Source: Armatimonadota bacterium (lineage in GTDB: Bacteria; Armatimonadota; HRBIN16). Taken from it: DNA of 64,000 bases. The notes beneath the pieces are model-generated. The model saw only the letters and a program-made list of their open reading frames with translations, searched no databases and was not told the origin of the DNA. How positions within the stretch are numbered: position 1 is the first letter of the stretch; each line of letters starts with the position of its first letter. Positions 45,852-50,723 of this stretch are shown piece by piece. Location of the stretch: assembly GCA_026003175.1 (NCBI GenBank), contig BPGT01000001.1:1-64000 (forward strand). The letters run 5' to 3'. The translations under genes and the position numbers were made by a program.

Positions 45852-46898
45852 ATGCTGGATAAGCGATACCGACTAACTCAACAGGTGCGCTGCGCGGGTT
45901 GAGCGAGCAAACTGGGTCCTTCCCAGCTGGCGCAGGTGCTGCGCCAGTTCCCTCAGATCGCTCATCCTGACCTGCTGGTGGGCATAGATACCCGTGACGA
46001 TGCAGGGGTATTTCGTGTCCGCGAGGACATGGCGCTCGTGCAAACGGTGGATTTCTTCACCCCGATAGTGGACGACCCTTACTGGTATGGCGCGATTGCG
46101 GCGGCGAATTCCTTCAGCGACGTGTACGCGATGGGAGGTACGCCGCTCACCGCGCTCAATCTGGTATGCTTCCCTATCGATAACGCCCCTGCTGCGATGC
46201 TGGCAGACATCCTACGCGGTGGCTACGACAAGGCTCAGGAGGCAGGTGTCGTCATCGTCGGCGGGCATAGCGTAGATGACCCCGAGCCCAAGTACGGTAT
46301 GGCGGTGACGGGAATAGTACACCCCCAGAAAGTGGTGACCAATGCAGGGGCGAAGCCGGGCGACCTGCTGGTACTGACCAAACCGCTGGGAACAGGTATC
46401 ATCACTACCGCCGCGAAGTTCGACGAGTGCCCGCCCGATGTGCTGGAAGAGGCGATACAGGTAATGGCAACACTCAACCGGGGCGCATCAGAGGCGATGC
46501 AAGAGGTAGGCGTGCACGCTGCCACCGACATCACCGGCTTTGGACTTATCGGACATCTGCACCAGATGGCACAGGCAAGTGGTGTAGCGTTTCGTCTCTT
46601 CTCACAACGGGTTCCTCTGTTGCCGGAGGTAGAACGTTTAGCCACACAGGGCAACACCACACGTGGCGGCAGTCTGAACCGCGAATACGTGGGCGACCTG
46701 CTGCAGTTTGCGGAGGGTGTAGCGTTGGCGATGCAGCATGTGTTGCTGGACCCTCAGACTTCGGGCGGGCTGGTCGTTGCGGTTGCCCGCGAGCGAGTGG
46801 ATGCCCTGCTAGACGCGCTACGTATCCGTCAATCTCCTTGCGCAGCGGTGATTGGAGAGGTTTTGAAAGGCACACCGGGGCGGATTGTGGTGGAGTAG
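45852..46898 (+). CDS. selD: Selenide, water dikinase with selenocysteine (TGA at 45900-45902)
   Basis: The frame from ATG 45852 reads MLDKRYRLTQQVRCAG, then TGA, then ASKLGPSQLAQVLRQFP. In SelD the catalytic Cys or Sec precedes a conserved Lys, and here TGA falls at that position with Lys three residues later. The rest is typical: GIDTRDDAGVFRV, GGTPLTALNLVCFP, GGHSVDDPEPKYGMAVTG and the C-terminal DPQTSGGL. Read through, it is 348 residues, the family's usual length; a start after the TGA would lose the active site. The enzyme makes selenophosphate from selenide and ATP. It implies a Sec system elsewhere in the genome. Confidence 0.92.
45903..45947 (+). promoter_or_regulatory. SECIS-like hairpin downstream of the selD UGA
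   Basis: CTGGCGCA (45927-45934) pairs perfectly with TGCGCCAG (45940-45947) around a GGTGC loop. The loop begins about 33 nt after the UGA, within the range of bacterial SECIS elements, and contains the GU often seen at the apex. A smaller hairpin (CTGGG/CCCAG) lies between them. Confidence 0.65.
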
Positions 46899-47006
46899 TC
46901 TATCCGATTGCCGATTCCCCGCGGGCTGCTCGATCGCGGGATCTCGAACAACCTCGTGTTCTGCTTGTGGTAGCGCAACTTGGCGTGCTTCTTTCCGAAA
47001 GCCTCC

Positions 47007-48095
47007 CTACACCAACCCCGACCCGTCTATGGGCGTAGTATCCAGCAACACGAGCACACCGCTGGAGAGAGCAGTGGCACGAGCGTTACCGGTGATACCC
47101 TTCCCCGCCACGACGGGAACGGTGTTCAGCCCCCACTGGCGAAGTAGTTCTGACCGTTGCATGGCGCGGGATACATCCTGTTCATCCACTGTCCACGAGA
47201 TTTCCCATACCAGCAGGCGCTCCTCGTCCGAAGAGCGATGTATCCCCTTCACCAGCAGGTCTATTTGGGATATCTGTTCCCACTCCTCACGAGTCGGGGC
47301 GCGCTGCTCGTACAGGGTATCGATGAGTCGCCCTTTATCCACCACACGCAGTTTGCGGAAGAACAACCCGAGCAAAGCGGTCGCGTTATTACGGTAGTAC
47401 TGCTCCAGCGAAAGCCCTTTCAATTCGCCAACGTCCCGCTCGAGGCGTTCGAAGCGTGCTGCCATCTGCTCAGCAATCTGGTCCACCCGCGCGGTGAGTT
47501 GCTCCAGTCGCACGGTCAGGTCGTCTACTCGCGCGGTGAGTTGCTCCAGTCGCACGGTCAGGTCGTCTACTCGCGCGGTGAGTTGCTCCAGTCGCACGGT
47601 CAGGTCGTCTACCCGCGCAGTGAGTTGCTCCAGTCGCACGGTCAGGTCGTCTACTCGCGCGGTGAGTTGCTCCAGTCGCACGGTCAGGTCGTCTACCCGC
47701 GCAGTGAGTTGCTCCAGTCGCACGGTCAGGTCGTCTACCCGCGCAGTGAGGCCGTCTACACGGCCGGTCAGTTCTTGTACACAACGTGCCAGGTCATCTA
47801 CCCGTGCGGTGAGTTGAATGAGCTTTTCCGCCAGATCGTTATGATGCGCTGCCTGCTGCCGCTGTTGTTCCTCTACCTGCCGAAAGCGTTGTTCGGTCTG
47901 CTCCATAAACCGATGCAGCGTCTGCTGGGTTGCTTCCTGAGCAGCCGCCAGGCGCGCGAGAGCCTCCTCCAACCGGTCCGCCCGCGAGGGCAGCTGCCGG
48001 TACTGGTCGGTCAGCAGGGCATTGAGCAGCGGTTCACGCCACTCGGGATGCTCCTGCAGCGCACGGATGATGTCTTCTACAGTCTCTAAAGCCAT
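47007..48095 (-). CDS. Coiled-coil repeat protein with nuclease-like C-terminus (DUF3782-like), paralogue 1
   Basis: A 362-residue protein. The N-terminal 49 residues (MALETVEDIIRALQEHPEWR and on) equal those of the next gene upstream. The centre is a coiled coil with six copies of LTARVDDLTVRLEQ (14 residues, 42 nt). The C-terminal 130 residues (LEQYYRNNATALLGLFFRKL, then IDLLVKGIHRSSDEERLLVW and EISWTV) show the D ... ExS layout of PD-(D/E)XK-like domains. Such DUF3782-like proteins are frequent in thermophiles and cyanobacteria; function unknown. Tandem with its paralogue, 8 bp apart. Confidence 0.75.
   Translation of the reverse strand: MALETVEDIIRALQEHPEWREPLLNALLTDQYRQLPSRADRLEEALARLAAAQEATQQTLHRFMEQTEQRFRQVEEQQRQQAAHHNDLAEKLIQLTARVDDLARCVQELTGRVDGLTARVDDLTVRLEQLTARVDDLTVRLEQLTARVDDLTVRLEQLTARVDDLTVRLEQLTARVDDLTVRLEQLTARVDDLTVRLEQLTARVDQIAEQMAARFERLERDVGELKGLSLEQYYRNNATALLGLFFRKLRVVDKGRLIDTLYEQRAPTREEWEQISQIDLLVKGIHRSSDEERLLVWEISWTVDEQDVSRAMQRSELLRQWGLNTVPVVAGKGITGNARATALSSGVLVLLDTTPIDGSGLV
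47488..47752 (-). repeat. 42-bp tandem repeat, six units, coding
   Basis: Six near-identical 42-nt units encode LTARVDDLTVRLEQ in paralogue 1. The units differ only at a few third positions (TCGCGCGG versus CCGCGCAG), which points to recent amplification by slippage or unequal exchange. Confidence 0.9.
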
Positions 48096-48103
48096 CGGAT
48101 GTG

Positions 48104-49339
48104 TTACCCCGAAGATAGTTCCTTACCGTTCAGCACGGCAGTATCCAGTACCAGGAAAACCTTGTTTTGTGTAGCGATTTGGCGTGCTTTGGTCGTAATG
48201 TCTTTCCCTGCCACCACCGCCTCAGTGTTCGGCTCCCACCGGCGCAGGATTTGGGCACGTTGCAAGGCGCGCTCTACATCGGTAGAGTCTATCACCCACG
48301 AAATCTCCCAGCAAAGCAGATAGTCAGCCCCAGATTGCCAGTCCTTTCCCGTCAGCAGCAGGTCTGCAGATACCAGCTGCTGCCACTCCTCGTCGGTGAG
48401 TGGAGCTCGCTCCTGCATCCGCTGCAGGTATTCCCCTTTGTCTATAACCTTTAATCCTCTGAAATACCTGCCGAGTATCGCGGGAGCGTTATTCCGGTAG
48501 TACTGTTCCAGAGTGTATCCTTTTACTTCGCCCAGGTCCTTTTCCACCTTGTCCAGGCGTCGTGACATGCTGCGCATCTCGCTCATGACTTCCTGGAAGC
48601 GTCGTTCGGTGCGGTCCTCCAGCTCCTGATGCACCCGACGCAACTCCTGTGTCTCGGCTCGGATTTCCTGGATTTGCTGTTCCGCTCGTTGGCGATACTC
48701 CTCGGTGGAAGCCCGTATCTCTTGGATTTGCTGTTCCGCTCGTTGGCGATACTCCTCGGTGGAAGCCCGTATTTCCTGGATTTGCTGTTCCGCTCGTTGG
48801 CGATACTCCTCGGTGGAAGCCCGTATCTCCTGGATTTGCTGGTCCGCTTTCTCGCGATACTCCTGGATTTGCCTTTCAGTCCTCTCACGATACTCCCGCG
48901 TCTCAGCCCGGATCTCCTGGATTTGTTGTTCAGCCCGTTGGCGATACTCCTCGGTGGAAGCCCGTATCTCTTGGATTTGCCGGTCCGCTTTCTCGCGATA
49001 CTCCTGTATCTGTCTGTCAGTTCTCTCTCGGTACTCCTGGATTTGCTTTTCCGTTCTCTCGCGATACTCCTGGATTTGCCTGTCGGTCTCCCTGCGATGT
49101 TCCTCCAGCGCAGCGCGCAGCTCATCGGAACGTCGCTCCGCCTGTTCAGCCAGCTCGCGCAGCCTGCGGTCAGTGAGCGCAGACTCCTCTGCCAGGCGCG
49201 CGAGAGCCTCCTCCAACCGGTCCGCCCGCGAGGGCAGCTGCCGGTACTGGTCGGTCAGCAGGGCGTTGAGCAGCGGTTCACGCCACTCGGGATGCTCCTG
49301 CAGCGCACGGATGATGTCTTCTACAGTCTCTAAAGCCAT
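48104..49339 (-). CDS. Coiled-coil repeat protein with nuclease-like C-terminus (DUF3782-like), paralogue 2
   Basis: A 411-residue protein with the same first 49 residues as paralogue 1, then a different central coiled coil with copies of EIRASTEEYRQRAEQQIQ (18 residues, 54 nt) mixed with EYREKADRQIQ-type units. The C-terminal part is homologous (LEQYYRNNAPAILGRYFRGL, LLCWEISWVIDSTDVERALQ), with the putative D ... ExS active site. Identical N-terminal coding sequence in the two genes suggests gene conversion or recent duplication. Function unknown. Confidence 0.75.
   Translation of the reverse strand: MALETVEDIIRALQEHPEWREPLLNALLTDQYRQLPSRADRLEEALARLAEESALTDRRLRELAEQAERRSDELRAALEEHRRETDRQIQEYRERTEKQIQEYRERTDRQIQEYREKADRQIQEIRASTEEYRQRAEQQIQEIRAETREYRERTERQIQEYREKADQQIQEIRASTEEYRQRAEQQIQEIRASTEEYRQRAEQQIQEIRASTEEYRQRAEQQIQEIRAETQELRRVHQELEDRTERRFQEVMSEMRSMSRRLDKVEKDLGEVKGYTLEQYYRNNAPAILGRYFRGLKVIDKGEYLQRMQERAPLTDEEWQQLVSADLLLTGKDWQSGADYLLCWEISWVIDSTDVERALQRAQILRRWEPNTEAVVAGKDITTKARQIATQNKVFLVLDTAVLNGKELSSG
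48655..49085 (-). repeat. 54-bp and related coiled-coil repeats, coding
   Basis: At least four near-identical 54-nt units encode EIRASTEEYRQRAEQQIQ, followed by shorter related units. The unit has no clear nucleotide similarity to the 42-nt repeat of the sister gene. Confidence 0.85.
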
Positions 49340-49380
49340 CGGATGTCACCGAGCATATTATACCAGATGGTGGGGAGACG

Positions 49381-50073: not shown

Positions 50074-50723
50074 AATCTCAGCACCTCCTCCACCACCTCG
50101 TCGAGGCTCATAGTATCGGTGTCGATGATCACTGCATCTGGCGCGGGGCGCAGGGGGGCTATGTGGCGGGTGCTATCGCGCTGGTCCCGCGCTTCCATAT
50201 CCAGCTTCACCTGCTCGAAAGAGATATTGATGCCTCGCTCCAGCAGCTCCTTGTGGCGACGGCGGGCACGCTCGTCCAGCGAGGCGGTCAGGAATATCTT
50301 CACTTCCGCGTTGGGGAAGACCACCGTACCTGTGTCGCGCCCTTCCGCAACGGTTCCGCCTTGTTTGCCAAACTCGCGTTGCCAGTCCAGCAGTATCTCG
50401 CGCACCTCAGGGATGGCGGAAATCGGCGAGGCAAGATTGCCCACCTCAGGCGTGCGGATAGCATCAGTCACATCTTGCCCATCCACCAGCACACGCTGTG
50501 TGCCATCCTGTTGCTGCAGGTCTACCCGTGTCTCCCGTGTCATCTCTATGATATATCGGGTGTCCTGTGGACGCAAGCCCCTCTGCAACGCTTTCCACGC
50601 CAGCGCACGGTATAGCGCCCCGGTATCCAGATATCGATAACCGAGCGCCTCAGCCACGCGCTTTGCCACACTGCTCTTACCTGCACCGGCGGGACCGTCA
50701 ATAGTGATGACCATCTGCTTCAT
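50031..50723 (-). CDS. cmk: Cytidylate kinase
   Basis: A 230-residue CMP/dCMP kinase. QMVITIDGPAGAGKSSVAKR is the P-loop, YLDTGALYRALAWKAL and TVAEGRDTGTVVFPNAEVKI the substrate motifs, and DERARRRHKELLERG the lid. The ATG at 50723 overlaps the aroA stop by 4 nt; an earlier in-frame start at 50786 would run through the aroA end and is rejected. Confidence 0.96.
   Translation of the reverse strand: MKQMVITIDGPAGAGKSSVAKRVAEALGYRYLDTGALYRALAWKALQRGLRPQDTRYIIEMTRETRVDLQQQDGTQRVLVDGQDVTDAIRTPEVGNLASPISAIPEVREILLDWQREFGKQGGTVAEGRDTGTVVFPNAEVKIFLTASLDERARRRHKELLERGINISFEQVKLDMEARDQRDSTRHIAPLRPAPDAVIIDTDTMSLDEVVEEVLRLCRARFTSEAPPST

What the first reader, a model, noticed from the sequence alone, without database searches (positions are those of the whole stretch)
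47007..49339. Tandem paralogues share both ends but carry unrelated amplified coiled-coil repeats
Both begin with the same 49 residues and end with a homologous D...ExS domain, but one has six 42-nt units (14 residues) and the other about four 54-nt units (18 residues). The near-identical units imply recent growth. Coiled-coil length may set the reach of a dimeric nuclease-like protein, and repeat number may vary between strains.
Basis: partly seen in the sequence, partly recalled or inferred. Interest (0 to 1): 0.52.

Follow-up and report, generated by a model that had tools for sequence, protein, structure and literature searches.

The report
Variable-length coiled-coil nuclease-fold protein pair
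Two neighbouring bacterial genes make rod-shaped proteins whose conserved ends are joined by a coiled-coil rod that grows and shrinks very quickly between related species, always in steps that keep the coil in register; the tail domain has a DNA-cutting-enzyme fold but lacks one usual catalytic residue.

Summary
Genes A (47007-48095, -) and B (48104-49339, -) share 50 identical N-terminal residues and homologous C-domains (49% identical), but carry different in-frame arrays: 42 nt x 6.4 and 54 nt x 3.7. A's coil has period 3.50 residues (heptads), B's 3.60 (heptad plus hendecad).

They belong to a multigene family (14 C-domain ORFs here, 14 in a congener). No Pfam, PHROGs or PADLOC model recognises the C-domain, but it is predicted (pLDDT 89) to have the PD-(D/E)XK fold, closest to EndoMS/NucS. 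Motif III is E-x-S, not E-x-K, in 23 of 24 members.

In the congener, 11 of 11 orthologous pairs differ in coil length by 7-219 residues, although C-domains are under purifying selection (dN/dS 0.07) and SMC has no gap. Gene A has six units here and none there. In 49 of 50 family ORFs with an array, unit length is a sum of 7s and 11s.

Verdict: a fast-evolving new variant of coiled-coil PD-(D/E)XK (DUF1626/DUF3782-like) proteins. The nuclease fold is supported; cleavage, dimerisation and reach-setting are untested.

The parts
47007..48095 (-). Gene A, 362 aa: N-cap, heptad coiled-coil rod, PD-(D/E)XK-fold domain
48104..49339 (-). Gene B, 411 aa: same N-cap, heptad/hendecad rod, homologous C-domain
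47946..48102 (-). Gene A N-terminal stretch (50 codons plus 7 nt upstream) nearly identical to gene B's
   Evidence: 148/150 nt to B, 141/150 to G004; upstream 7 nt read
49190..49346 (-). Gene B N-terminal stretch, partner of the above
47481..47750 (-). 42-nt (14-residue, two heptads) array, 6.4 copies, 96% matches
48666..48864 (-). 54-nt (18-residue, hendecad + heptad) array, 3.7 copies, 93% matches
48860..49098 (-). Older, degenerate 33-nt (11-residue) and 54-nt repeats of gene B
47010..47444 (-). Gene A C-domain, PD-(D/E)XK fold; A residues 218-362
48107..48547 (-). Gene B C-domain
47196..47204 (-). Motif III of gene A, E298-I-S300 (Ser where the catalytic Lys would be)
   Evidence: codons checked
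47259..47261 (-). Motif II Asp of gene A, D279
   Evidence: D62 of A1, nearly invariant

Best explanation
A and B are tandem members of a dispersed multigene family of rod proteins. Each has a small three-helix N-terminal cap of about 33 residues, then one uninterrupted helix that forms a coiled-coil rod and runs straight into a C-terminal PD-(D/E)XK-fold domain. Rod length changes by gain and loss of tandem units through slippage or unequal recombination between short direct repeats. Products survive when frame and coiled-coil register are kept, so units are sums of 7 and 11 residues; length itself is weakly constrained, while the C-domain is under purifying selection. The N-caps of A and B were recently made alike by gene conversion or unequal exchange. 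The C-domain most likely still acts on DNA, with its acidic metal-binding residues and motif IV arginines, like DUF1626 proteins that lack the motif III lysine. Shown: repeats, family, length change, selection, synteny. Predicted: fold, continuous helix. Inferred: oligomer, mutational mechanism, DNA as target, residual activity.
For: Repeats and periods. Model of the C-domain, pLDDT 89.3, topology a-b-a-a-b-b-a-b-a-b. VIA-align Z 11.0 (rmsd 2.6, 100 aligned) to P. abyssi repair endonuclease 2vld, 10.7 (rmsd 3.4, 107 aligned) to EndoMS 5gke, 9.5 (rmsd 2.6, 100 aligned) to AF1548 1y88. Full-length model of the G004 orthologue: helices 6-15, 17-27, 30-33, then a single helix 35-137 into the core. 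hhalign of A1 to a sister ExS group, prob 98; to an E-S-K group, prob 83, E 9e-6, with S over K. Length change in 11 of 11 orthologous pairs; 16 of 19 control ORF pairs have no internal gap; SMC, 1175 aligned residues, no gap. C-domain dN/dS pooled 0.072. 49 of 50 top units = 7a+11b residues. selD-array-plsC synteny with 1 to at least 3 genes. DUF1626: motif III Lys often Thr, basic motif IV helix (PMC1913061, passages).
Against: No Pfam, PHROGs or PADLOC model matches the C-domain. The catalytic Lys column is Ser in 23 of 24 and Pro in 1. Motif IV Arg R97 of A1 is also present in the E-x-K sister groups, so it is no special compensation. The profile match to the A3 group is weak (prob 18). 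No oligomer was modelled. Neighbours are housekeeping genes and hint at no pathway. Recent N-cap homogenisation is seen only in this genome; N-cap pairs in three other genomes match at 114/147, 118/150, and 125/150, 105/132, 119/132.
Confidence: 0.6

Rival explanations
1. Pseudo-nuclease: the E-x-S domain has lost catalysis and serves as a DNA- or protein-binding head on a rod, while the E-x-K sister paralogues in the same genome are the active enzymes.
For: Ser in 23 of 24 and 5 of 5 members of two E-x-S groups, Lys in 8 of 8 and 3 of 3 of the two E-x-K groups. Non-catalytic relatives of the fold such as RPB5 appear among the fold matches (that RPB5 is non-catalytic is recalled).
Against: Motif II Asp, motif III Glu and motif IV Arg stay invariant or nearly so and dN/dS is low. 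DUF1626 has the same pattern and was predicted active through a migrated residue (PMC1913061).
Confidence: 0.35
2. Adaptive ruler: selection tunes rod length so that two heads, or head and cap, span a given distance.
For: The C-domain is conserved and the rod changes; the rod is one continuous helix in the model.
Against: Lengths differ between close relatives at every locus compared, in both directions, by 7 to 219 residues; no preferred length is seen among paralogues.
Confidence: 0.1
3. Insulation: distinct coil sequences and periodicities keep paralogues that share cap and head from mixing into hetero-oligomers.
For: A has period 3.50, B 3.60; longer coils of the other G000 paralogues peak between 3.50 and 3.57. 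The G008 relative of B has its own 18-residue unit of different sequence between homologous coil ends.
Against: Independent amplification of random stretches of an old coil would give the same picture; no oligomer data.
Confidence: 0.1
4. Assembly error: unit numbers are collapsed or expanded copies.
For: Fragmented assemblies of relatives break inside this locus (contig ends of G003, G005, G007, G009).
Against: G000 has 7 contigs and G004 about 30, both with contigs over 1 Mb. The G004 gene has no exact unit at all, which collapse would not give. Changes occur at 11 of 11 loci and not in SMC.
Confidence: 0.03

Closest known systems
DUF1626 / COG5493 (PF07788), predicted PD-(D/E)XK proteins with N-terminal coiled coil (PMC1913061, passages read)
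   Same: Coiled coil then PD-(D/E)XK-fold domain; motif III Lys often replaced by a small hydroxyl residue (Thr there, Ser here); basic motif IV helix.
   Different: No Pfam match at E<=1 to this model for any of 24 C-domain members; an N-cap of its own; freshly amplified coils.
DUF3782 (PF12644), coiled-coil segment of prokaryotic PD-(D/E)XK endonucleases (PMC4786415, passages read)
   Same: Stalk-plus-nuclease architecture; E-S-K sister proteins in the same genus score near or over the cut-off.
   Different: No match in the window's genome; heptads and hendecads here, nonads with beta-layers in the crenarchaeal members.
EndoMS/NucS C-terminal nuclease domain (2vld, 5gke)
   Same: Best structural match, Z 11.0 and 10.7.
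   Different: Sequence identity 11-14%; E-x-S instead of E-x-K; all-helical N-terminal half.
RmuC (PF02646)
   Same: Coiled coil plus PD-(D/E)XK domain (recalled).
   Different: No match in G000 or G004.
CoCoNuTs (PMC11090510; start of abstract in search listing only)
   Same: Coiled coils and nucleases in tandem genes.
   Different: Those are McrBC systems; here the neighbours are selD, purK/purE, a plsC-like gene, cmk and aroA.

Membership tests
PD-(D/E)XK superfamily | Core fold | tested here: met
   Predicted model, Z 11.0 to 2vld and 10.7 to 5gke, above the rows below
PD-(D/E)XK superfamily | Motif II Asp and motif III Glu | tested here: met
   D62 in at least 90%, E81 in 24 of 24
PD-(D/E)XK superfamily | Motif III Lys | tested here: not met
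   Ser 23 of 24, Pro 1 of 24
PD-(D/E)XK superfamily | Nucleic-acid cleavage | not testable with these tools
   Needs purified protein
DUF1626 (PF07788) | Match to the Pfam model | tested here: not met
   No match at E<=1 in 24 C-domains
DUF1626 (PF07788) | Hydroxyl residue for motif III Lys plus basic motif IV helix behind a coiled coil | tested here: met
   E-x-S with invariant R93 and R97 of A1; continuous helix upstream; trait as described in PMC1913061
DUF3782 (PF12644) | Match to the Pfam model | tested here: not met
   0 matches in G000
EndoMS/NucS | C-terminal nuclease domain fold | tested here: met
EndoMS/NucS | Beta-rich N-terminal DNA-binding domain (recalled) | tested here: not met
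   Residues 6-137 modelled as helices only
RmuC | Match to PF02646 | tested here: not met
   0 of 2 genomes
CoCoNuT / McrBC | Adjacent McrB-type GTPase | tested here: not met
   Seven neighbouring ORFs scanned are housekeeping or signalling genes
Known anti-phage defence or phage families | Match to PADLOC or PHROGs | tested here: not met
   0 of 24 C-domains at E<=0.01

The most novel reading that the evidence does not exclude
A whole paralogous protein family in one bacterial genus uses its coiled-coil rod as a freely evolvable, register-quantised module: every locus compared has changed rod length since two species split, in sums of heptads and hendecads, and each paralogue carries its own coil so that rods with shared caps and heads stay separate (self-recognition by coil).
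Probability: 0.12. Interest if true: 0.75.

Novelty: new variant of a known kind. Interest (0 to 1): 0.5.

Why it matters
It is a natural experiment on coiled-coil length: conserved heads and caps, and a rod that differs at all 11 orthologous loci compared, in register-preserving steps, while SMC in the same genomes does not change. That makes it testable whether rod length matters in coiled-coil nuclease-fold proteins and how coils grow by duplication. It also adds a Pfam-invisible E-x-S branch to a kind of protein with no known function.

Tried and rejected
Full-length Pfam and NCBIfam hits (ATG16, SMC, apolipoprotein and others) are coiled-coil composition matches and were set aside. PDB sequence hits to designed TIM barrels cover 27-47 residues around the D-V-x-R-A helix and were taken as chance. 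The 310-aa ORF on the + strand over gene A and other long ORFs in the arrays are frame echoes of stop-free repeats.

The idea that an Arg in motif IV replaces the Lys only in E-x-S proteins was rejected as a test: R97 of A1 is also invariant in the E-x-K groups. The idea that N-caps are homogenised in every tandem array was rejected: only this genome shows it. A first reading that fold matches to Can2/Card1 or MspJI might give the function was dropped; they rank below EndoMS/NucS (Z 7-8.4). The plasmid search gave one relative at 34% identity (Thermomicrobium roseum plasmid, hypothetical protein) without telling context.

Dropped before counting: of 14 C-domain ORFs in G000, 3 have no usable G004 orthologue (gene B; L005, best 39%; L151, a fragment with an in-frame stop), leaving 11 pairs. 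Pair L150/L147 aligns poorly outside the C-domain (150/201 identical). The gap sizes in pair L012/L103 (3, 7, 7, 15) are not all sums of 7s and 11s; the alignment in the repeat is not unique. Among the 19 control ORF pairs, two are antisense shadow ORFs (46885-47397, 50163-50615); the three pairs with gaps had 9+2, 1 and 7 residues. The 70 ORFs are those I had fetched; they include partial ORFs at contig ends and orthologues, so 49 of 50 is not a count of independent events; 20 of 70 had no array.

Papers read: PMC4786415 and PMC1913061, passages only; PMC11090510 and the rest, listing only. No paper describing this length variation was listed; that is no proof of absence.

Full report
What is there. 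Two tandem genes on the minus strand, A (47007-48095, 362 aa) and B (48104-49339, 411 aa), lie 8 nt apart between selD/purK/purE on one side and a plsC-like gene, cmk and aroA on the other. They share 50 identical N-terminal residues; the first 150 nt differ at 2 positions. Their C-domains are 49% identical. Between these ends A has a 42-nt array (6.4 copies, 96% matches) and B a 54-nt array (3.7 copies, 93%) with older 33/54-nt repeats behind it. A's unit LTARVDDLTVRLEQ is two heptads; B's unit TEEYRQRAEQQIQEIRAS reads as a hendecad plus a heptad (my reading of the hydrophobic spacing). The hydrophobic spectrum peaks at 3.50 residues for A and 3.60 (18/5) for B, each reached by 0 of 500 shuffles.

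A dispersed family. The genome G000 holds 14 ORFs with a related C-domain, one of them a fragment, and its congener G004 also 14. They fall into four C-domain groups: A1 (24 members aligned, includes A and B), A5, A3 and A4. The N-cap is shared by members of A1, A3 and A5; the A4 proteins that I read start differently. In the phylum, A1 matches 33 of 291 genomes, 20 of 194 of the good ones. Record titles of two relatives name Chthonomonadia.

The C-domain. No Pfam, PHROGs or PADLOC model matches it. AlphaFold2 on A1 gives mean pLDDT 89.3. The best structural matches are the EndoMS/NucS nuclease domain (2vld Z 11.0, rmsd 2.6 over 100 residues; 5gke Z 10.7) and AF1548 (Z 9.5); lower rows are mostly other PD-(D/E)XK proteins, as I read the titles. 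Motif II Asp and motif III Glu are kept, but the Lys column is Ser in 23 of 24 and Pro in 1 of 24 in A1, Ser in 5 of 5 in A5, Lys in 8 of 8 in A3 and 3 of 3 in A4. hhalign puts Ser of A1 over Lys of A4 (prob 83, E 9e-6); A1 to A5 is prob 98; A1 to A3 is weak, prob 18, in the same register. One A3 member reaches UPF0102 at E 3.5e-4, below that model's cut-off. DUF1626 proteins are described as coiled coil plus PD-(D/E)XK with Lys often replaced by Thr and a basic motif IV helix (PMC1913061, passages). The window family has the same pattern with Ser and two invariant Arg, but R97 of A1 is present in all four groups, so compensation by it is not shown.

The rod. The full-length model of the G004 orthologue of A (257 aa, pLDDT 87, pTM 0.57) has helices 6-15, 17-27 and 30-33, then one helix 35-137 that enters the nuclease-fold core. 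At 0.15 nm per residue (established value) that rod is about 15 nm; A's 105 extra residues would make it about 31 nm, and B's about 38 nm (inference).

Rod length changes fast. Gene A aligned to its G004 orthologue shows one clean 105-residue difference, six exact units against none. Other orthologues have 1 (G009), 2 (G006) and 2 (G001) exact units; a 3'-truncated G005 ORF also has 2. So units were probably both gained and lost. Of the 14 G000 ORFs, 11 have a usable G004 orthologue, and all 11 pairs differ in rod length: net 105, -175, 7, 126, -14, -25, 18, 26, -96, -14, -219 residues. Controls: 16 of 19 other ORF pairs in this window have no internal gap, and SMC aligns over 1175 residues at 89% identity without a gap, so this is not a general property of coiled coils in these genomes, as far as one protein can say. 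C-domain dN/dS is 0.072 pooled, 0.02-0.30 by pair.

Register. Of 70 family ORFs examined, 50 have a TRF array, and the top unit is a multiple of three nucleotides in 50 and a sum of 7s and 11s in residues in 49; the exception is 15 residues. Of lengths 7-35, 41% are such sums. Orthologues are in the count, so this is not a probability. Seven and eleven are the heptad and hendecad of coiled coils (established knowledge); the result says that surviving duplications keep the register.

The locus. The selD-array-plsC arrangement is conserved in the genus; G004 has one gene there, G008 and G002 two, and G009 at least three, at contig ends. B's nearest relative (G008, C-domain 66%) has an 18-residue unit of different sequence between homologous coil ends, and a G009 relative has about one copy of that unit, so coil centres appear to be re-amplified independently. 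A and B N-caps are closer to each other (148/150) than either is to G004 (141/150), although their C-domains are old paralogues; recent conversion or unequal exchange explains this best.

Function. Most likely a rod with a DNA-acting head; activity is unproven, and a non-catalytic head is a serious rival. Length tuning of reach and coil-based insulation of paralogues remain open.

Noticed in passing
L067:259-408 (G003:C108): A short ORF joins the first 26 residues of the N-cap to the last part of an A-type C-domain: it looks like an internal-deletion remnant of this family.
   Followed up: partly
L151 (G000:C1:1138972-1139351): A family paralogue in the window's genome split by an in-frame TAG, probably a pseudogene.
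   Followed up: no
G000 and G004: No RmuC (PF02646) match in either genome, although RmuC is a common bacterial coiled-coil PD-(D/E)XK protein (the remark on RmuC is recalled).
   Followed up: no
L008:1405-2595: An E-S-K sister protein with a 75-nt (25-residue) unit, 5.9 copies, 100% matches: even fresher growth than in the window.
   Followed up: partly
11 G000-G004 orthologue pairs: Synonymous divergence of C-domains ranges from 0.05 to 1.35 between the same two genomes, which suggests recombination between species.
   Followed up: no
L004:1471-2187: A paralogue with E-V-P in motif III, a very short coil (175 residues less than in G004) and the highest dN/dS, 0.30; perhaps decaying.
   Followed up: no
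window 47157-48089 (+): A 310-aa ORF antisense to gene A; an echo of the stop-free repeat.
   Followed up: no
L020 (Bacteroidia bacterium KatS3mg026): A relative with a 63-nt array in a record labelled Bacteroidia, so the architecture may reach other phyla.
   Followed up: no
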